A stretch of 37,486 bases of DNA from contig JAFRAH010000031.1 in assembly GCA_017405525.1 (NCBI GenBank), positions 1-37,486 on the forward strand. Direction: 5' to 3'. The notes under the pieces were generated by a model. It was given only the letters and a program-made list of their open reading frames with translations. It had not been told where the DNA came from and searched no databases. Made by a program: the position numbers and the translations under genes. The DNA is from Synergistaceae bacterium (GTDB lineage: Bacteria; Synergistota; Synergistia; Synergistales; Aminobacteriaceae). Position 1 is the first letter of the stretch. Each line of letters starts with the position of its first letter. Positions 11,600 through 35,837 of the stretch are shown here, piece after piece.

Positions 11600-12640
11600 T
11601 TATATTCGAGAAGGCTTGCCAATAAGGACAGCTTTCAAGGCTTTAAGTTGCTTATCAGACACCAATACCTTGAGACAAATTTTAGCGGCATTAATCAATT
11701 TACGTTTGAAAGCATAATAACAATGTGAAAAGTATCCGTAACGATATATACTACCAGAGTATAGGTTTTCTTCTATGCTGCCGTAACGTCTCTTATATGC
11801 CAAGTCTCCACCGCTGAGGAAAAGCTCTGATTTCCCTTTATCTGCAAGCCGACCCAAATAGTAGTGGTATATCATTTTCCCGGCTGAATACTTCGAGTAT
11901 TTCATGTCATAGCTCAAGTTCTCTATATACACCACAGGACACTGCTCGCAAGAAAGAACAACGGCAATAATATTACGTTCTCTTTCCCCGCGCATAACAT
12001 AGACATGTGAGGTCTGACTCCGTTCTGCATAGTCCCTCGCCTTGATTGAATGCCATTCCTTGCTCACCCGGCCCTTATGGGTTTTCTCTTTCATCCTTAG
12101 GAAAGCATCGACAGCCTCATAAAAGCATTCCCCTTCTGAAACAGAATCATATTCCTCAAATATGAGGCCGCCTGTTTCCTGCTCAAGCAATCTTCTCTCG
12201 CGATTGATGTTATATCTTGACTTTGCGGAAAGACGTGAATACATTTCTTCAGATGTCTTGGGTATCTTGATTCTGAAATGGTTTATAGGACAGGAAAAAC
12301 CTTCCCCCGAATAACTGCGCGTATACGATACATATTCTACATTTTTGTGCCTACCTAGTATGTACTTGCCACATTCAGAAACAACATAGCCTGGAATTTC
12401 AGTCAGCCATATCCCTAAATGGGCGGTAGTGCCAAAAGGATGGCGGCGATATAACACTTGAACATAGTAATCTTTTTTGCCATCAGACACATGTAACGTT
12501 TCAAACTCAGAGGCATCGATATTGCTATACAGATCAAATCGGTTATATATGAAATTGGGGGATACCAAGCAAGCACTGCCATTGTCAACAGTTATAGTAA
12601 TAGCGTGGTTCGTGGTTCGATTATAGCCGCCTAAAATCAC
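11600..12640 (-). CDS. GNAT acyltransferase, CelD/FemAB-like (Acetyltransf_6 type)
   Basis: This 346-residue protein resembles the C-terminal GNAT domain found in CelD/BioF2-like and FemAB-like proteins, which add acyl or aminoacyl groups to polysaccharides, lipids or peptidoglycan precursors. Supporting features are RLSAKSRYNINRERRLLEQ around residues 134-152, then YDMKYSKYSAGKMIYHYYLG and LFLSGGDLAYKRRYG, the usual pair of late motifs. No signal peptide or clear membrane segment is visible. The start is GTG at 12640 with AAAGGA about 12 nt upstream. It sits 20 nt after engB and ahead of a strong terminator, so it is probably cotranscribed with the clp operon. The base composition is distinctly lower (19 of 60 G+C at 11701-11760), suggesting acquisition or relaxed selection. 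The substrate is unknown. Confidence 0.7.
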   Translation of the reverse strand: MILGGYNRTTNHAITITVDNGSACLVSPNFIYNRFDLYSNIDASEFETLHVSDGKKDYYVQVLYRRHPFGTTAHLGIWLTEIPGYVVSECGKYILGRHKNVEYVSYTRSYSGEGFSCPINHFRIKIPKTSEEMYSRLSAKSRYNINRERRLLEQETGGLIFEEYDSVSEGECFYEAVDAFLRMKEKTHKGRVSKEWHSIKARDYAERSQTSHVYVMRGERERNIIAVVLSCEQCPVVYIENLSYDMKYSKYSAGKMIYHYYLGRLADKGKSELFLSGGDLAYKRRYGSIEENLYSGSIYRYGYFSHCYYAFKRKLINAAKICLKVLVSDKQLKALKAVLIGKPSRI

Positions 12641-21018: not shown

Positions 21019-22395
21019 ATGAGCAAAGCAAACGTTCCCTACAAAATATATCTTGATGAGAGCGAGATACCATCATCCTGGTACAACGTAAGGGCAGACA
21101 TGAAGACCAAGCCCGCACCACTCATTCATCCCGGCACGCTCAAGCCCCTGAAGTTCGAGGAGATGAGGCCGATATTCTGCGACGAGCTCATACGCCAGGA
21201 ACTTGACGACGATACCCCCTACATCCGCATACCCAACGAGATTCAGAACTTCTACAAGATGTACAGGCCTTCACCTCTTGTTCACGCGGTCTACCTTGAG
21301 GAGTTACTGGGGACACCGGCGCATATATTCTACAAGTTCGAGGGCAACAATACGTCAGGCTCCCACAAACTGAACTCGGCAATAGCTCAGGCATATTACG
21401 CGAAGACTCAGGGCCTCAAGGGCGTAACGACTGAGACAGGGGCAGGCCAATGGGGTACGGCTCTGGCTATGGCTTGTTCGTTCTTCAAGCTGGAGTGCAA
21501 GGTCTACATGGTGAAAGTGTCGTACGAGCAGAAACCCTTCAGGCGTGAGGTCATGAGGACATACGGAGCGAGCGTTACCCCATCCCCGTCAATGGACACG
21601 AACATAGGCCGCAAGATCAACGCAGAGCATCCCGGAACGACCGGCTCACTCGGCTGTGCAATCTCTGAGGCTGTCGAGGTGGCAACGTCAACGGAAGGTT
21701 ACCGCTATGTTCTTGGGAGCGTCCTCAATCAGGTCTTGCTTCACCAGTCAGTGATAGGTCTTGAGACTAAGGCGGCGTGCGAGAAGTACGGCATAAAACC
21801 CGACATCATCATCGGCTGTGCAGGAGGGGGCTCGAACTTGGGCGGGCTGATCTCCCCGTTCATGGGCGAAAAGCTCAGAGGCGAGGCTGACTACCAGATT
21901 ATAGCGGTTGAACCTGCAAGCTGCCCCAGCTTCACACGAGGCAAGTTCGCGTATGACTTCTGCGACACCGGCAAGGTCTGCCCGATGGCGAAGATGTACA
22001 CGCTCGGCCATGACTTCATACCCAGTGCGAACCATGCGGGAGGACTGCGCTATCACGGAATGAGCAGCATACTCTCACAGCTCTATCATGACGGCTTGAT
22101 GGAGGCTCGTGCGGTTGAACAGACCAGCGTTTTCGAGGCCGCCGAAATGTTCGCGAGGGTTGAGGGGATTTTGCCGGCTCCTGAGAGCTCACATGCTATT
22201 CGTGTGGCGATTGACGAGGCTCTGAAGTGCAAGGAGACCGGCGAGGAGAAAACCATCATAATGGGACTGACCGGGACGGGGTATTTCGACATGGTGGCCT
22301 ATGAGCAGTACAACAACGGGACAATGACGGACTATATTCCGACTGATGAGGACTTGGCGAAAGGATTTGCTACTATTCCGAATGTGAACCTGTAG
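21019..22395 (+). CDS. trpB: Tryptophan synthase beta chain, TrpB2 type
   Basis: TrpB condenses indole with serine (or an activated serine) in a PLP-dependent reaction to give tryptophan. The 458-residue product is of the longer TrpB2 class, with an N-terminal extension, RPSPLVHA in place of RPTPL, the PLP lysine K117 in TSGSHKLNSA, TETGAGQWG, the phosphate-binding GCAGGGSN and AGGLRYHG. No trpA or other trp gene is adjacent. TrpB2 enzymes are often encoded away from trpA and are thought to salvage indole or to use O-phosphoserine; that role is inferred from the family. GAGGAGG precedes the ATG by about 10 nt. The gene lies downstream of lysR. Confidence 0.93.
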   Translation: MSKANVPYKIYLDESEIPSSWYNVRADMKTKPAPLIHPGTLKPLKFEEMRPIFCDELIRQELDDDTPYIRIPNEIQNFYKMYRPSPLVHAVYLEELLGTPAHIFYKFEGNNTSGSHKLNSAIAQAYYAKTQGLKGVTTETGAGQWGTALAMACSFFKLECKVYMVKVSYEQKPFRREVMRTYGASVTPSPSMDTNIGRKINAEHPGTTGSLGCAISEAVEVATSTEGYRYVLGSVLNQVLLHQSVIGLETKAACEKYGIKPDIIIGCAGGGSNLGGLISPFMGEKLRGEADYQIIAVEPASCPSFTRGKFAYDFCDTGKVCPMAKMYTLGHDFIPSANHAGGLRYHGMSSILSQLYHDGLMEARAVEQTSVFEAAEMFARVEGILPAPESSHAIRVAIDEALKCKETGEEKTIIMGLTGTGYFDMVAYEQYNNGTMTDYIPTDEDLAKGFATIPNVNL

Positions 22396-22442
22396 CATAA
22401 TATCTCCAGAAACTGGGAAGGTCAGGGGTAAGTCTGGGCTGT

Positions 22443-22479
22443 GATAAAATACACTTCAGGTTTACCTCTGAATTTTATC
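22443..22479. repeat. Imperfect inverted repeat between trpB and the DUF262 gene
   Basis: GATAAAA ... TTCAG (22443-22459) pairs with CTGAA TTTTATC (22468-22479), with a 5-nt bulge on the left side. The final TTTTATCTT makes it a plausible weak plus-strand terminator for trpB. Confidence 0.35.
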
Positions 22480-22502
22480 TTGGGGAGCAGAGATTTGCTT
22501 TG

Positions 22503-24293
22503 ATGGATCAGATTTTCAGCACCACGAATTTTACAGTTAATCAGCTTGTAGAGAAAATAGAGACTGGTGATCTTGGTTTGCCGGAGTTGCAGCGGCCTTT
22601 CGTGTGGAAGGACACACAAATACGCGACCTCCTTGATTCAATGCTGTTAGGGTATCCTGTAGGCTACCTCATGTTGTGGGATTGCCCTATGCTTGAGAAA
22701 AAGAAATCGATCGGAATCAATGAGAAAAATTATTCTGCCCCAAGAGAAGTAATTATTGACGGCCAGCAGAGGTTGACATCGTTATACGCTGTGATGAAGA
22801 GCAAAAGGGTTGTTGATGCAAAATACAAAGAACGCGAAATTATAATCTCGTTCAATCCGTTGATTAACAAGTTTGAAGTTGGGAATGCGTCTTCAAGGCA
22901 AAGCTCTGAATGGATATACAATATTAGTGAGTTGTTCGCTAAAACAAGTTCCGCAAAGTTTATATTTCAATTTACCGATACGCTTGCAGAATCCCGGAAG
23001 AAGAACAGCAAAATTCTCACAGACAGCGAACGTGAAACTATTTCAGAGAATATAGAAGCGGTGTTCAACCTCAAGAAATATAGTTTCCCTGTCTTCAAAA
23101 TCAAGGCCAATGCAGATGAGGAAGCTGTATCGCAAATATTTGTGCGAATAAACTCGCAAGGGGTAAAGCTCACAGAGGATAGCTTTGTCTTGACGTTAAT
23201 GTCTGTTCACTGGGAGGAAGGACGCAGGGATATTGAAAAACTCTGTGCTGATTCTTTGGCTCCCTCCACTAGTGGCACTACTTCATACAACAGTATAGGC
23301 ATCAAGATAGAGCCTAAAGATGTCATACGCACGCTCATAGCTTATGCGTTCGGCAAGTCAAGAATAAGTTACGGATATAGGCTGCTGAGGGGGACTGACT
23401 TTGAACATAACGGTGTCATAAGCAGGGAACTCATGCAGAAAAATTTTACTGTCCTGCAAGAAAGGCTGCCTGAAGTAATGAACATAAATAATCTTCATGA
23501 ATTTTTCAGGGCAATGATGGATGCGGGCTACCTTGTCGATAGTATGATAGGTGTGAAAAGTATTATCTTCTACACTTACGCAATGTATTTAACAGCAAAG
23601 TATAAATTCAATGCATCCAACAATGAGAACAGGAAATTAACAGCATTGTGGTTTTTCCATGCCATACTTATGTCGTCATATTGGCGCAACGAATCAACAG
23701 CTGAAACCTTGTTTAATGCAATAAAGAGTTTCTCAACGTTTCAGGAGTATAAAGACTATATACTCTCAATAATAAGTCAGAAATTTACGAACTATTACTT
23801 CAATACGACTCTTACCGGGGCTGACTGTCTTGGGGCTTCGGGTTATGGCAATAATTCTTGGTATGCTTATGTTGCCTCGTTAAACATACTGGGTACAAAG
23901 GCTCTCTTCTCTCACAGCAAACTTCCTGCATCTGCTTTGTTCTTGCCCGGCTCTGACGGTACGCGCAAGGCACTGGAGAAGCATCATCTTTTCCCCAAAG
24001 CATACCTCAAGGCTCAAGGCCTCACTGACACGCAGATTAACCATATGGCAAATTACGCCTATATAGACTGGAACGATAACCTGAAGATTTTTGATGAGCC
24101 TCCTTCTGTGTACTACCCCTTAATATGTGAGGGAATGACAGAGGAAGAAATAGCGTTGATGGAAGATGAAAACGCATTGCCTCACGGTTGGGAAAATATG
24201 AATTATGACAAGTTCCTTATGCTCAGGCGTAAGTTAATGGCAGAAATCATAAGAAAGGCTTGCGAGGATCTGAAGGACAGGTTAAAAGTATAA
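22503..24293 (+). CDS. DUF262 / HNH-type protein, GmrSD-like putative modification-dependent nuclease
   Basis: The 596-residue product combines an N-terminal DUF262 (ParB-like/GmrS-like NTPase) domain with a C-terminal HNH-type nuclease region, the layout of single-chain GmrSD/BrxU-like type IV restriction enzymes that cut modified phage DNA. DUF262 signatures are LPELQRPFVW near residues 27-36, GYPVGYLMLWDCP and IIDGQQRLTSLY; RINSQGVKLTEDSF comes later. The C-terminal part has EKHHLFPKAYL (H494, H495) followed by an Asn-rich NHMANYAYIDWNDNLKIF. I took ATG at 22503; TTG at 22500, 12 nt from GGAG, is an alternative. G+C is low (18 of 60 at 22921-22980, against 32 of 60 at 21061-21120 in trpB), and the gene stands alone between housekeeping genes, which suggests acquisition. 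The target is unknown. Confidence 0.8.
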   Translation: MDQIFSTTNFTVNQLVEKIETGDLGLPELQRPFVWKDTQIRDLLDSMLLGYPVGYLMLWDCPMLEKKKSIGINEKNYSAPREVIIDGQQRLTSLYAVMKSKRVVDAKYKEREIIISFNPLINKFEVGNASSRQSSEWIYNISELFAKTSSAKFIFQFTDTLAESRKKNSKILTDSERETISENIEAVFNLKKYSFPVFKIKANADEEAVSQIFVRINSQGVKLTEDSFVLTLMSVHWEEGRRDIEKLCADSLAPSTSGTTSYNSIGIKIEPKDVIRTLIAYAFGKSRISYGYRLLRGTDFEHNGVISRELMQKNFTVLQERLPEVMNINNLHEFFRAMMDAGYLVDSMIGVKSIIFYTYAMYLTAKYKFNASNNENRKLTALWFFHAILMSSYWRNESTAETLFNAIKSFSTFQEYKDYILSIISQKFTNYYFNTTLTGADCLGASGYGNNSWYAYVASLNILGTKALFSHSKLPASALFLPGSDGTRKALEKHHLFPKAYLKAQGLTDTQINHMANYAYIDWNDNLKIFDEPPSVYYPLICEGMTEEEIALMEDENALPHGWENMNYDKFLMLRRKLMAEIIRKACEDLKDRLKV

Positions 24294-24297
24294 CATG

Positions 24298-24306
24298 TGC
24301 TAAAAT
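24298..24306 (+). promoter_or_regulatory. Candidate extended -10 promoter of typA
   Basis: TGCTAAAAT is a TGn-extended -10 box in the 52-nt gap between the DUF262 gene and typA, about 40 nt before the ATG. The -35 is weak. Confidence 0.35.
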
Positions 24307-24345
24307 TGCGTGAAAAATTCATTACAACAGGACTGAAAATTTTCC

Positions 24346-26229
24346 ATGCAATTACAGAACGCAAAAAACATCCGCAACCTCGCCATAGTTGCCCACATTG
24401 ACCACGGCAAAACCACACTCATTGACTCAATCTTCAGGGCTGCCCAGACATTCGCGGCACACACCCAAGTAGCCGAGCGCGTAATGGACTCCAACCCCCT
24501 CGAACGTGAACGTGGCATCACAATACGAAGCAAGCCCTGCACAGTCGAGTGGAAGGGTTACCACATAAACATCATAGACACTCCCGGACATGCTGACTTC
24601 TCCGGCGAGGTTGAACGAATCTTGTCGACAGTCGACAGCGTTATACTCATCGTCGACGCGAACGAAGGCCCAATGCCTCAGACCCGCTACGTCCTTCAGC
24701 ACGCCCTCTCAATCGGAATGCGTCCCCTCGTCTTCATCAACAAGGTAGACCGTGAAGGTGCTGACCCTACACGTGCCCTTAACCTCACGTTTGACTTGTT
24801 CTTTGAGCTCGGTGCAAGTGATGAGCAGGCTGACTTCCCCGTCCTCTATGGCTCAGGTCTCAACGGATGGGCAGTCAATGACCTCAGCAAGCCTCACGAG
24901 GGAATGGATGACTTGTTCCAGGCAATAATCGACCACGTTCCTGCTCCTGACGTTGACCCGGATAAGCCCTTCCTTATGCAGGTCAGTACTCTGGCATGGA
25001 ATGAGTACGTCGGGCGCATTGGCTGCGGGAAAATCCTTCAGGGTCATATCCGAAAGGGTGAACAGTTCGTGAGGGTCTCCACAAAATGGAACTCCAACGA
25101 CCACACAGGGAACGACTGGGAGATTACCGGCAAGGAAAACGCAAAGGCAGCTCAGCTCTGGGTAACTCGTGGGCTTGAACGCGTTGAAGTCGAGGAAGTC
25201 AGTGCGGGAGATATTGTGTGGATTACCGGGCCGAACGAAATCAACATAGGCGATACTTTCTGCGCTGAAGAGATCTCCGACAACCCACTAAAACCTCTCT
25301 CCATTGAGGAACCTACAGTGTCTATGTTCTTCCTCGTGAACTCCGGGCCATTCGCAGGGCGTGAAGGTCAGGCAGTAACGTTGAGACAGCTCAAGGCACG
25401 ATTGCAACGTGAAATGCACGTTAATGTGTCGCTCAGGATGGAGGACTTGGGACGGCCTGACGGTGTGAAGATTTCGGGGCGCGGTGAATTACAGCTCGGC
25501 ATTCTCATTGAGGAGATGAGGCGTGAGGGTATGGAGTTCTGCGTGTCGAAGCCTGAAGTCATAGTCGAGTACAAGGACGGCGTGAAGTGCGAGCCCTACG
25601 AGCTGGTTACTATTGACGTTCCCGAAGAGTACCAGGGTATAGTGTTCGAGAAGATGACGCGGCGGAAGGGCAAAGTCCTCAACATCGACAACCCTGACCG
25701 GGGACTCTTACGCATTGAGATAGAGATACCGACAAGGGGACTTATAGGCTACCGTGGCGAGTTCCTCACTGACACCAGAGGCTTGGGGATAATGTCTAAC
25801 TGTTTCAGCGGCTATAAGGAATGGGCAGGCGACCTCATCACGCGCAACCGTGGCTCACTCGTCAGCATGGACACGGGAGAAGCTACGGCCTACCAGCTGG
25901 AGAACCTGCAGAGCCGTGGAGTACTCTTCATTTCCCCGCTTGAGCAGGTCTACAACGGAATGATTATCGGCGAGTGCTCAAGGCCGGGCGATATTCCCTG
26001 CAACCCCACCAAGAAGAAGCAACAGACTAACCACCGTTCAGCCACAAAGGAGCTCACAACGAAACTTGACGTTCCCCGCAGAATGTCCCTCGAAAAGGCT
26101 ATGGAGTGGATTGAGACAGATGAGCTCGTTGAGGTTACCCCGCAGTCAGTGAGGCTAAGGAAGGCCATACTCGACGAGCTCGAACGCCGAAAAGCCCAGA
26201 GACGACAGCCGCAGGAACAGGGAGCATGA
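24346..26229 (+). CDS. typA: Ribosome-associated translational GTPase TypA/BipA
   Basis: TypA/BipA is an EF-G-like GTPase that helps ribosome assembly and stress or cold adaptation. The 627-residue product has G1 AHIDHGKTT (16-24), switch [11 protein letters not shown]4 NKVDREGA, then the domain II/III and V segments and the TypA-specific C-terminal domain with [16 protein letters not shown] and the late [30 protein letters not shown] block. The length is normal. The last codons overlap the start of the WG-repeat gene (ATGA). It probably has its own promoter in the gap after the DUF262 gene. Confidence 0.96.
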
Positions 26230-32688: not shown

Positions 32689-35600
32689 CTATTCGGCGAT
32701 AATGTAGAGTGTCCCGGATTCAAGCTCTGAGCCGTTATGCGTTGCCTTTACGCAGACCTTGAAGTCTCCAGTTACGAGCTCAGCCTTGAGGGTGAATGTC
32801 CCATCATCTGAGATCGTGATACCTTCAGCGGGCTTGTCGTCAATCCAGACTGTAACGCCTGAGACCTCAACGCTCCACTTGCCCAAGATGAAGGTTAGTG
32901 TCTTACCTGCCTTGACGGTGATTAGGTCGCTTTCCTGTCCTTCACCTGAGCCGAGAACGTCATCACTCTTTACGCCCAGCGATGCAGGAAGTACCGCCTT
33001 TCCTGTTCCGTCCGTTTCGGGGATGCCGCCAGGAACTCCGGGAATGTCCTGAACTTGAGGGAGTCCTGCCGTGAGTTCAGCGGGCATGTCCCCGGAAGTG
33101 TCAGGCTGTAACGGCTTCGCTGATGACGTGGCGGTTACCTTGACGGTGTAGTTCTTTGTGCCGGCCGCTCCGTTAGAGTCTTTTGCCTTGAGGGTGAACG
33201 TGAATGTGCCTGACTTCGTGAACGTCCCGGTAATTTTCCCGGTCGATGTGTTGAGTGTGAGGCCGTTCGGAATTTTCCCGCTGCTCACGCTCCACGTATA
33301 GGGTGCTTCACCACCTGATGCCTTCGGGCTGAACGTGAAGGAGCTTCCTACTGTCCCTGTTGCCGGGATTGTACCTGTTACTGTCGTCTGAGTTACCGTT
33401 ACGGTGTAGGCTTTAGTCCCTGCTGCGCCGTTGCTGTCTTTGGCCTTTAGTGTGAACGTGAAAGTACCTGCCTTTGTGGGCGAGCCGGTGATTGCCCCGG
33501 TTGATGCGTTCAGTGTGAGGCCGTCAGGAAGTTTCCCGGATGAGACCGACCACGTATAGGGGCTTGCTCCGTTTGAGGCTTTCGGTGTCCATGAGCACGA
33601 GGCTTTGCGGGTTATAGTTGCCGGGATTGTCCCTGATACTTTCGTCTGAGTTACCTTGATGGTGTAGGCTTTAGTCCCTGCCGCACCATTTGCGTCTTTG
33701 GCCTTGATGGTGAACGTGAAAGTACCTGCTTTTGTGGGTGAGCCGGTGATTTTTCCGTTCGATGAGTTCAGCTTCAGGCCGTCAGGAAGTTTTCCGGATG
33801 AGACCGACCAAGTATATGGGCTCTTTCCACCGCTAGCTTGAGGCGTTCCAGTGTATGAGTCCCTCCGTGTCGTTGTTGCCGGGATTGTGCCGCTTACTGT
33901 CGTCTGCGTAACCTTCAGCGTGAAGTCCTTTGTGGCTGTCCTGCCGGTGTTGTCCTTGAGCTGTACCGTGAAGGTGAATGTGCCTGCTTTGGTCGCTGTG
34001 CCGGTGATTTTCCCAGATGATGCCTTGAGCGTCAGGCCGTCGGGAAGTGAACCGTTGCTGACTGACCACGTATAGGGAGTTGCCCCGCCAAGTGCCGCTA
34101 GTTTCGTGCTGTATGTTGCGCGCCGTGTCGTGTCGGGAAGTGAGGAGGTCGTTATCTCCATGGTCTTGACGACGTTTAGCTCAGGGTCGGCAGCTACGGT
34201 GATGTTCTCATGGCAGGTGCTTACGTCGAGGGTTGTGAGCTCATTTGCCCAGCAGATTAACCCCATCAGTGAGGTACAGCCGCTAACGTTGAGGGTCTTC
34301 ATGTTATTATGACAGCAACTAAGGAATTTCAGAGCGGTCTTGTTGCTCACATTAAGTTTTGACAGTTGGTTACCGTCGCAGCGTAGCGTTACCAAATCGT
34401 TAGCGTTGCTTACGTTAAGCGTGGTAAGCTGATTCCACCGACAGTCCAAGTTTCTTAAAGCCGCACACCCGCTTATGTTGAGTTTGTTCAGTCCAGAACC
34501 AGAGCAATCCAGATCCGTCAAGGCCGTGCACTTGCTGAGGTCAAGCGTGTTCAGCTGGTTACCGGCGCAGTTCAGTGTCTCTAGTGCCCTGCATTTGCTG
34601 AGGTCAAGCGTTTGTATCTGGTTGCCTCCACATTCCAGATTAGTGAGGGCTGTGCACTTGCTGAGATTGAGCGTTCTTATCTGGTTTCCGCCGCAATTGA
34701 GATCCTTTAAGGCAGTGCATTTGCTGACATCAAGGGCGGTTATCTGGTTGTTCCAGCATCCCAAGTTGGTTAGGTTCGTGCATCCGCTGACGTTGAGCGT
34801 GGTTAGCTGGTTGTCGTTGCATGTCAGCTCCATTAGGGAGGTGCAGGTGCTCACGTCAAGAGTGGTCAGCTTAGTATTCCAGCATCTCAGGGTGATTAGC
34901 TTCGTACAGCCGCTAACGTTGAGCGTGGCAAGCTGGTTATTGTCGTTGCATTCCAGATCCATTAGGGAGGTGCAGGTGCTTGCATCAAGTGCCGTCAGGT
35001 TGTTGTTCCAGCAATTCAGGCGGATTAATTTTGTGCAACCGCTAATGTTGAGGGTGGCCAGCGGGTTATCGTTGCATTCCAGTTCCGCCAAAGCAGAGCA
35101 TGTGCTCACATCGAGGGCTGTCAGCTGAGCACCGCCGCAGTTTAGGTACATCAAGGACGTACAACCTGCAACGTTAATCGAGGTCAGTTGAGAGTTCCCC
35201 CAGCAGTTAAGCTCCATGAGAGACGGGCATGTACTGGCATTAATTGAGGTCAGCTGAGTGTTCCCGCAGTTCAGGGACTTCAAGGACGTACAGCCTGTAA
35301 CATTAAGCGAGGTCAGGGGGTTGTCGTCCAAATACAGGAAACGCAAAGAAGTGTTCCCGCTGACATTAATTGAGGTGAGCTGGTTATTGGTACAATTAAG
35401 ATGATCCAACGACGTACAGCCGCTAATATTCAGCGAGGTCATTCCGTTATTCCAGCATGAAAGATCAACAAGAGCTCTATTACTGCTAACGTCAACCGTG
35501 CTCAAGTGGTTATCCTCACAGTGAAGAACCTCAAGTGCCGTCAAGTACTCAATACCCTTCAGGTTGTAGACTGACCTTCCGCCTATGTGGACTTCTTTGG

Positions 35601-35781
35601 CCTCGGCAATTTCTGCGGCATTAAGCACCCCGTTATTGTCTGTGTCAAATCCCCTGACAGTATCGCGGACAACGTTATCCGGGAAATTCGCCTCGTCAAT
35701 AGCTACGTCGCCCCATGCATACCCGGCAATAGTGAGCACACATGCCATTACCGCCCAAAAAATACAATACTTCCTGCGCAT
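32689..35781 (-). CDS. Secreted leucine-rich-repeat and Ig-like-repeat surface protein
   Basis: This 1030-residue exported protein begins with a signal peptide (basic MRRK, hydrophobic core, cleavage near AWG), then a short stretch with FDTDNNGVLNAAE that resembles a calcium-binding EF-hand/dockerin loop. Residues about 83-523 hold about 21 leucine-rich repeats of 21 residues (LxxLxCxxNQLTxLNVSGCTS), most with a Cys after the LxxL core. About residues 546-883 hold four Ig-like (He_PIG) repeats of 86 residues with YTWSVSSGKLPDGL. A Pro/Gly linker and a C-terminal beta-rich domain follow, with no LPxTG or obvious sorting motif. Such BspA/internalin-like proteins usually bind host or cell-surface partners. 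I chose ATG at 35781, because GGAG is 11 nt away; a GTG at 35790 is only 2 nt from it. It is monocistronic, with its own promoter and terminator. Confidence 0.88.
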   Translation of the reverse strand: MRRKYCIFWAVMACVLTIAGYAWGDVAIDEANFPDNVVRDTVRGFDTDNNGVLNAAEIAEAKEVHIGGRSVYNLKGIEYLTALEVLHCEDNHLSTVDVSSNRALVDLSCWNNGMTSLNISGCTSLDHLNCTNNQLTSINVSGNTSLRFLYLDDNPLTSLNVTGCTSLKSLNCGNTQLTSINASTCPSLMELNCWGNSQLTSINVAGCTSLMYLNCGGAQLTALDVSTCSALAELECNDNPLATLNISGCTKLIRLNCWNNNLTALDASTCTSLMDLECNDNNQLATLNVSGCTKLITLRCWNTKLTTLDVSTCTSLMELTCNDNQLTTLNVSGCTNLTNLGCWNNQITALDVSKCTALKDLNCGGNQIRTLNLSKCTALTNLECGGNQIQTLDLSKCRALETLNCAGNQLNTLDLSKCTALTDLDCSGSGLNKLNISGCAALRNLDCRWNQLTTLNVSNANDLVTLRCDGNQLSKLNVSNKTALKFLSCCHNNMKTLNVSGCTSLMGLICWANELTTLDVSTCHENITVAADPELNVVKTMEITTSSLPDTTRRATYSTKLAALGGATPYTWSVSNGSLPDGLTLKASSGKITGTATKAGTFTFTVQLKDNTGRTATKDFTLKVTQTTVSGTIPATTTRRDSYTGTPQASGGKSPYTWSVSSGKLPDGLKLNSSNGKITGSPTKAGTFTFTIKAKDANGAAGTKAYTIKVTQTKVSGTIPATITRKASCSWTPKASNGASPYTWSVSSGKLPDGLTLNASTGAITGSPTKAGTFTFTLKAKDSNGAAGTKAYTVTVTQTTVTGTIPATGTVGSSFTFSPKASGGEAPYTWSVSSGKIPNGLTLNTSTGKITGTFTKSGTFTFTLKAKDSNGAAGTKNYTVKVTATSSAKPLQPDTSGDMPAELTAGLPQVQDIPGVPGGIPETDGTGKAVLPASLGVKSDDVLGSGEGQESDLITVKAGKTLTFILGKWSVEVSGVTVWIDDKPAEGITISDDGTFTLKAELVTGDFKVCVKATHNGSELESGTLYIIAE
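33133..34146 (-). repeat. Four tandem 258-bp repeats encoding Ig-like modules
   Basis: Four consecutive modules of about 86 codons encode the Ig-like repeats. Long DNA stretches are nearly identical between copies, for example around 33512-33560 and 33779-33830. The similarity indicates recent duplication or homogenisation, and the copy number may vary between strains. Confidence 0.85.
34213..35535 (-). repeat. About 21 tandem 63-bp leucine-rich repeats
   Basis: This is a coding repeat with a 63-bp period (two copies are 66 bp), each encoding one 21-residue LRR. Copies are less uniform than the Ig-like modules but share the CWNNQLTTLNVSGCT core, and alternate copies use SGCT and STCT. Confidence 0.85.
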
Positions 35782-35837
35782 AACTATCACTTCTCCTTTT
35801 TGGGTTTGTGTGTTCTAGTTTTTTGTGGAATGCGTGA

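What the first reader, a model, noticed from the sequence alone, without database searches (positions are those of the whole stretch)
22503..24293. Low-GC, stand-alone GmrSD-like gene between trpB and typA
The DUF262 motifs (QR and DGQQR) and the C-terminal HHLFPK/Asn-rich region match single-chain modification-dependent nucleases used against phages. The gene has clearly lower G+C than both neighbours (18/60 versus 32/60 in sampled lines) and no partner genes, so it is probably a one-gene defence insertion in a core region.
Basis: partly seen in the sequence, partly recalled or inferred. Interest (0 to 1): 0.5.

Follow-up and report, generated by a model that had tools for sequence, protein, structure and literature searches.

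The report
Solo BrxU-like DUF262-HNH restriction gene
A single, horizontally exchanged bacterial gene that very probably makes an anti-phage DNA-cutting enzyme of a known kind (BrxU/GmrSD-like) sits in a variable gap between two housekeeping genes; it is a good example of ordinary defence-gene turnover rather than something new.

Summary
Window 22503-24293 (+) is an intact 596-aa gene between trpB and typA, with low G+C (0.414; mean of 26 other window ORFs 0.524). Its N-terminus is a clear GmrSD_N/DUF262 domain; its C-terminus is an HNH (His-Me finger) fold whose residues are invariant in 55 aligned homologues. The AlphaFold model (pLDDT 87) matches BrxU over nearly its whole length (Z 17.7), then SspE and DndI. 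PADLOC's HEC-05 (= BrxU) profile matches residues 7-587.

It differs from GmrSD proper: no PF07510 match, and HHxFP/HHxYP replaces (E/D)H in all 55. I file it as a BrxU/HEC-05-like protein that most likely works as an NTP-driven, modification-dependent nuclease.

The gene is in 7 of 43 congeneric genomes, always directly after trpB; the nearest congeners lack it, and its tree conflicts with the typA tree. The interval is a plastic slot with mostly non-defence cargo, not a dedicated hotspot. Near relatives outside the genus often end type I or Eco57I-like restriction operons. The genome carries two putative C5-methyltransferase genes, which argues against a plain 5mC target. New member of a known kind; modest interest.

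The parts
22503..24293 (+). BrxU/HEC-05-like DUF262-HNH protein, 596 aa (in-frame TTG at 22500 is an alternative start)
22536..23177 (+). GmrSD_N (DUF262, ParB/Srx-like) domain, residues 12-225: Q30 R31, R41-S46 (BrxU RLFDS equivalent), D86-R90 (DGQQR), F213-S218 (FxRxNS)
   Evidence: ParB/Srx fold matches
23982..24143 (+). HNH (His-Me finger) core, residues 494-547: H494 H495 at the end of a beta strand, N517 at the next strand, N526; all invariant
   Evidence: Nme1Cas9 HNH match
22422..22471 (+). hairpin (17-pair outer stem) between trpB stop and the gene, probably trpB's terminator; the loop region carries a -10-like TGTGATAAAAT (22440-22450)
   Evidence: z -2.7. The pattern scan did not call a terminator or a promoter here, so the roles are inferred
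24295..24307 (+). promoter-like ATGTGCTAAAATT before typA, present or nearly so in the 15 linked intervals compared; right-hand boundary of all cargo
   Evidence: not called by the consensus scan
21019..22395 (+). trpB, left flank
24346..26229 (+). typA, right flank

Best explanation
The gene encodes a single-chain restriction enzyme built like BrxU. An N-terminal DUF262 domain binds and hydrolyses a nucleotide and senses foreign, probably base-modified, DNA; a helical middle links it to a C-terminal HNH nuclease that cuts that DNA. Shown here: the sequence motifs, the whole-length BrxU-like predicted fold, the invariant HNH residues, the restriction-operon setting of near relatives, and horizontal exchange within the genus at one site. 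Inferred from BrxU and GmrSD: nucleotide hydrolysis, the switch between dimer and monomer, and cutting of modified phage DNA. The target is probably a hypermodified base, not plain 5mC. The gene has been gained and lost repeatedly downstream of trpB, probably by recombination through the conserved flanks, because no recombinase or end repeats were recognised.
For: GmrSD_N E 3.9e-33. HEC-05 profile E 6.7e-35 over residues 7-587; HEC-05 is equated with BrxU in a passage of PMC11411939. BrxU is the only strong PDB relative by profile (1.1e-21) and by fold (Foldseek 7.9e-14; Z 17.7, 484 residues). D86-R90, S46, H494, H495, N517, N526 invariant in 13 and 55 sequences. Near relatives lie at the end of restriction operons: type I genes next to or near the gene in L106 and L185, an Eco57I-type methylase plus a ResIII helicase in L184 and L109. 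Of 80 close co-directional neighbours of 79 wider relatives, 14 match ResIII, 7 Methylase_S and 6 HSDR_N (overlapping counts, no control set). Patchiness 7 of 43, at least 4-5 gains or losses on the typA tree, AU p 0.0138 against the typA grouping, third-position identity lower than typA in 21 of 21 pairs and than trpB in 15 of 15 usable pairs.
Against: No biochemical or phage data for this clade in anything read here. No PF07510 match, and the position of BrxU D474, whose alanine mutant was inactive, is His in all 55 homologues. BrxU cuts 5mC DNA, yet this genome has two PF00145 genes, and 5 of the 7 carriers have at least one match, so the specificity cannot be simply BrxU's if those enzymes are active. 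The global rmsd to BrxU is large (about 20 A): the domains match but their arrangement differs or is not predicted. Two of seven congeneric copies (G033, G039) are frameshifted. The carriers are hardly less scattered on the typA tree than chance (58 of 500 shuffles as low), the typA tree is a single-gene tree, and the gene tree used a quick search.
Confidence: 0.7

Rival explanations
1. It is an accessory of restriction-modification systems that works only with a partner (as TgvA needs TgvB), and the solo copy next to trpB is an orphan with no or another role.
For: Near relatives are embedded at the ends of type I and Eco57I-like restriction operons; TgvA and TgvB cannot act alone (passage in PMC11411939); two of seven solo copies in the genus are frameshifted.
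Against: Both sensor and nuclease domains are in one chain with every key residue kept; [quoted passage not shown] five of seven solo copies in the genus are intact although they differ from each other at 26-43% of residues, which suggests selection for function while solo.
Confidence: 0.12
2. It senses DNA phosphorothioation, as SspE or DndI do, rather than modified bases.
For: SspE and DndI are the next fold matches after BrxU (Z 7.3-11.9).
Against: No dndC match in the window's genome at 99.4% completeness (the Ssp modification genes were not searched); BrxU matches clearly better (Z 17.7).
Confidence: 0.07
3. It is a decaying or selfish passenger with no defence function now.
For: Broken copies in G033 and G039; patchy presence; low G+C relative to host.
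Against: The window copy is intact with all catalytic-type residues, a plausible ribosome-binding site (GGAGCAG upstream of ATG) and a -10-like element.
Confidence: 0.08

Closest known systems
BrxU (Escherichia fergusonii, PDB 7p9k/7p9m); PADLOC HEC-05
   Same: Single chain of similar length (596 vs 587), DUF262 motifs, helical middle, C-terminal HNH; whole-length fold match Z 17.7; HEC-05 profile matches 7-587; embedded or stand-alone defence gene.
   Different: 15-16% identity; HHLFP where BrxU has DHIYP; not in a BREX locus; host carries putative C5-methyltransferase genes although BrxU cuts 5mC DNA.
GmrSD / Eco94GmrSD (type IV restriction, PF03235 + PF07510)
   Same: GmrSD_N domain with QR, DGQQR and FxxxN; order sensor then nuclease.
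   Different: No PF07510 match at E 1; HH instead of (E/D)H; a second gene in the same genome (G000:C28:218-1945) is the more GmrSD-like one, with a weak PF07510 match.
SspE and DndI (phosphorothioate-sensing)
   Same: DUF262 plus HNH, fold matches Z 7.3-11.9; weak PADLOC SspE hit.
   Different: Lower fold score than BrxU; no dndC in this genome.
TgvAB (Vibrio cholerae VPI-2)
   Same: DUF262 and HNH domains, tied to a type I restriction cluster, as relatives of this gene are.
   Different: Two-protein system; here one chain with no partner.

Membership tests
DUF262 / GmrSD_N (PF03235) | profile match over the curated cut-off with QR, DGQQR and FxxxN motifs | tested here: met
   115.7 bits against cut-off 33.2; motifs invariant
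GmrSD type IV enzymes (strict) | GmrSD_C / DUF1524 (PF07510) domain | tested here: not met
   no match at E up to 1; three relatives also none at E up to 0.01, while another gene of the same genome matches weakly, below its cut-off
GmrSD type IV enzymes (strict) | E/D-H-N-N nuclease residues (PMC4619093) | tested here: not met
   first residue is H in 55 of 55 sequences; H, N, N are kept
GmrSD type IV enzymes | cleaves sugar-modified hydroxymethylcytosine DNA, not unmodified DNA | not testable with these tools
   needs protein and DNA substrates
BrxU / HEC-05 | whole-length profile match | tested here: met
   PDLC04151, residues 7-587, profile 23-593 of 600, E 6.7e-35; PADLOC's own thresholds were not applied
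BrxU / HEC-05 | BrxU-like fold of both domains | tested here: met
   Z 17.7 over 484 residues, model 6-588; global rmsd about 20 A, so the domain arrangement is not confirmed
BrxU / HEC-05 | DHIYP nuclease motif with essential D474 and H475 | tested here: inconclusive
   HHLFP: the H475 equivalent is kept, the D474 position is H; the correspondence was read by eye from the motifs, not from a residue-level structure alignment
SspE / DndI phosphorothioate sensors | co-occurring phosphorothioate modification genes | tested here: inconclusive
   no dndC (TIGR03183) in the genome; Ssp modification genes were not searched

The most novel reading that the evidence does not exclude
The trpB-typA gap of this genus is a docking slot where alleles of one solo DUF262-HNH nuclease are swapped between species by homologous recombination through the conserved flanks, with no mobile element. 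The HHxFP clade would have a narrower target than BrxU (not 5mC), which lets it coexist with host C5-methyltransferases.
Probability: 0.3. Interest if true: 0.4.

Novelty: new member of a known kind. Interest (0 to 1): 0.22.

Why it matters
It adds a well-supported BrxU/HEC-05-like enzyme outside a restriction-operon setting and gives a clean case of a one-gene defence cargo traded at a fixed chromosomal site. If it is active in a host that methylates cytosine at C5, it would be a useful tool for asking how DUF262 enzymes tell phage modification from host modification.

Tried and rejected
Rejected: 'the gene is vertically inherited and core' (7 of 43 genomes of the genus, nearest relatives G029 and G004 lack it). 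Rejected: 'dedicated defence hotspot' (of the 14 other linked intervals 4 hold the same gene, and most of the rest hold a methyltransferase-like gene, transport or peptidase genes, surface proteins or unknowns). Not found: a mobile element at the site; no useful repeats and no recombinase recognised among the ORFs read (only some of these ORFs were scanned against Pfam). NCBIfam gave no family.

Weak spots: the trpB rows of G003 are wrong, because a stop sign was dropped in alignment and the codons slipped; I left out its 6 pairs with the other carriers and used 15 of 21. dS was saturated (printed as -1) for most gene pairs, so I used third-position identity. Highly expressed flanks may diverge more slowly at synonymous sites, so that comparison is supportive only. 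The neighbour tally has no control set and used 80 of the 81 co-directional neighbours (one, in L111, was a fragment of the gene itself). The 80 loci are the best 80 of 225 relatives. L177 gave no qualifying ORF and dropped out.

The two carriers without a PF00145 match (G033, G039) are the two with frameshifted genes; this is too few to read anything into, and both frameshifts may be assembly errors.

No claim is made that nothing is in print on this clade. Papers: PMC11411939, PMC4619093 and PMC8565348 were read as found passages; PMC12409352 as outline with abstract and the Results section; others only as search listings. The correspondence of HHLFP to DHIYP is my reading of the motifs, not a tool result. 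A phage-record search (9 records, 2 covering at least 80% of the query, best 38% identity) and a plasmid search (369 records, 19 covering at least 80%, best 33% identity) added nothing to the argument.

Full report
Observation. The ORF at 22503-24293 (+) is real: 596 aa, starting at ATG. G+C falls from 0.51-0.57 to 0.40-0.43 across it and recovers in typA. Against 26 other window ORFs of at least 120 aa the gene is lowest in GC (0.414 against a mean of 0.524, sd 0.031) and second lowest in GC3. No other gene lies between trpB and typA.

What the protein is. Pfam finds only GmrSD_N (residues 12-225, E 3.9e-33); NCBIfam finds nothing. PADLOC's best model is HEC-05 (E 6.7e-35, residues 7-587), with PDC-M55C, SspE and others weaker. 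HEC-05 is equated with BrxU in a passage of PMC11411939. By sequence profile the PDB holds BrxU (1.1e-21) and, weakly, SspE (0.016). An AlphaFold model made from 55 sequences has mean pLDDT 87.4 and pTM 0.80. Its best structural matches are BrxU (Z 17.7 and 17.5, about 484 residues, model 5-588), SspE entries (7.3-11.9) and DndI (11.2). ParB and sulfiredoxin folds follow for the N-terminal half, and the Nme1Cas9 HNH domain for residues 450-569. Global rmsd to BrxU is about 20 A, so the domains match but the whole arrangement is not confirmed.

Residues. DGQQR (86-90), S46 of the BrxU RLFDS position, H494, H495, N517 and N526 are invariant in 13 close and 55 wider homologues. In the model H494-H495 end one beta strand and N517 stands just before the next, as a His-Me finger should. 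All 55 have HHLFP, HHIFP or HHLYP (40, 13 and 2), where GmrD has (E/D)H (PMC4619093) and BrxU has DHIYP with both D474 and H475 needed (PMC8565348). That, and the missing PF07510 match, is why I do not file the protein as GmrSD in the strict sense. A second DUF262 gene of this genome, G000:C28:218-1945, is the more GmrSD-like one, and DUF262 genes of one kind or another are in 37 of 43 genomes of the genus.

Where relatives live. Of 100 genomes searched, own included, 25 have some match; close copies (57-76% identical) are in 6 other genomes of the genus, and a 44% copy is in another genus of the family. Outside the genus the nearest are Bacillota and IMG/VR contigs at 51-57%. I listed the neighbours of 14 of these loci and scanned ten neighbour proteins from six of them. 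L106 and L185 carry type I restriction genes upstream, with a helicase or HsdR next to the gene. L184 and L109 carry an Eco57I-type methylase and a ResIII helicase just upstream. L105 has a ResIII helicase two ORFs upstream. The L104 protein had no match. In 79 wider relatives, 80 close co-directional neighbours gave 14 ResIII, 7 Methylase_S, 6 HSDR_N, 3 N6_Mtase and 3 Eco57I matches (overlapping counts). None of the 90 loci L104-L193 has trpB or typA nearby. G045's protein is identical to that of L115, a Synergistaceae MAG contig of the same length, 36,593 bases. G045 is listed as of the window's family, so the window's organism is very probably one of the Synergistaceae.

The site. In 15 of 43 genomes of the genus trpB and typA lie on one contig within 5 kb. 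The gap is 1.3-4.9 kb. Five hold this gene (window, G022, G027, G032, G033). The others hold a methyltransferase-like gene (G004, G012, G010, G031; no Pfam match in the one scanned), unknown secreted-looking proteins (G034, G035, G040), a gene matching the Cas2 profile weakly (G034), an MmeI C-terminal remnant (G024), a DUF6273 protein and another surface-like ORF (G029), and an IF-2B/mtnA-like gene with transport- and peptidase-like genes (G037). G032 has DUF5058 and M20 peptidase genes after this gene, and G033 an FAD-binding reductase. Two more carriers, G003 and G039, have the gene right after trpB with typA on another contig. So 7 of 7 copies directly follow trpB. In the unlinked G030 a type III methyltransferase follows trpB, and in the unlinked G039 one precedes typA. 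The slot therefore sometimes holds restriction genes but is not a defence-only hotspot.

Boundaries. After trpB a hairpin-like sequence is seen by eye in most genomes; in the window it spans 22422-22471, with TGTGATAAAAT in its loop region (folded for the window, G022, G039 and G004). Before typA the 15 linked intervals keep a sequence like ATGTGCTAAAATT; in G022 and G027 the gene's stop codon lies inside it. The consensus scan did not call either element, so their roles are inferred. No useful repeats mark the ends.

History. On a 104-row tree the seven genus copies form one side of a branch (SH-aLRT 94, not starred), next to Bacillota copies. On a 30-genome typA tree the carriers need 5 changes (shuffled mean 6.4; 58 of 500 shuffles as low), and the window's nearest relatives G029 and G004 have other cargo. 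Forcing window, G022, G027 and G039 together, as the typA tree has them, is rejected (p-AU 0.0138). Third-position identity between copies is below that of typA in 21 of 21 pairs and of trpB in 15 of 15 usable pairs. I read this as repeated allele exchange at one site within a genus-level pool after an old arrival; rapid evolution of a vertically kept gene with many losses is not fully excluded. Low G+C is not universal among carriers (0.374-0.510).

Mechanism. The best reading is BrxU-like: nucleotide binding in the DUF262 domain, sensing of foreign DNA, cutting by the HNH domain. BrxU cuts 5mC, 5hmC and, best, glucosylated DNA (PMC12409352). The window's genome has two PF00145 genes; in all, 5 of 7 carriers and 16 of 36 non-carriers have at least one. 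If those enzymes are active, a 5mC cutter would be self-harming, so a narrower target is likely. Phosphorothioate sensing is less likely: no dndC.

Verdict. Ordinary and well supported: a new, solo member of the BrxU/HEC-05 kind, with a clear case of same-site exchange.

Noticed in passing
L015:1492-3747 (G087): A homologue with an extra C-terminal SLFN_AlbA_2 (Schlafen) domain, E 1.7e-15: a DUF262-HNH-Schlafen fusion.
   Followed up: partly
G000:C28:218-1945 (L224): Second DUF262 gene of the window's genome, GmrSD-like with a weak PF07510 match; similar 580-aa genes in many congeners.
   Followed up: partly
L079:13406-15192 (G039) and L074:4749-6520 (G033): Two congeneric copies of the gene are split by frameshifts; pseudogenes or assembly errors. 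Both genomes also have no PF00145 methyltransferase match.
   Followed up: partly
window 22422-22471 and the same place in congeners: Hairpin after trpB whose loop region often carries a -10-like element (e.g. TGTGATAAAAT), as if terminator and next gene's promoter overlap.
   Followed up: partly
window 11603-12640 (-): GNAT-type acetyltransferase ORF (PF13480) with equally low G+C (0.415), another possible recent arrival.
   Followed up: no
window 32692-35790 (-): 1033-aa ORF with leucine-rich repeats and several Ig/PKD domains, probably a surface protein.
   Followed up: no
L077:1351-2295 (G024): C-terminal remnant of an MmeI-type IIG restriction enzyme in the same trpB-typA slot.
   Followed up: partly
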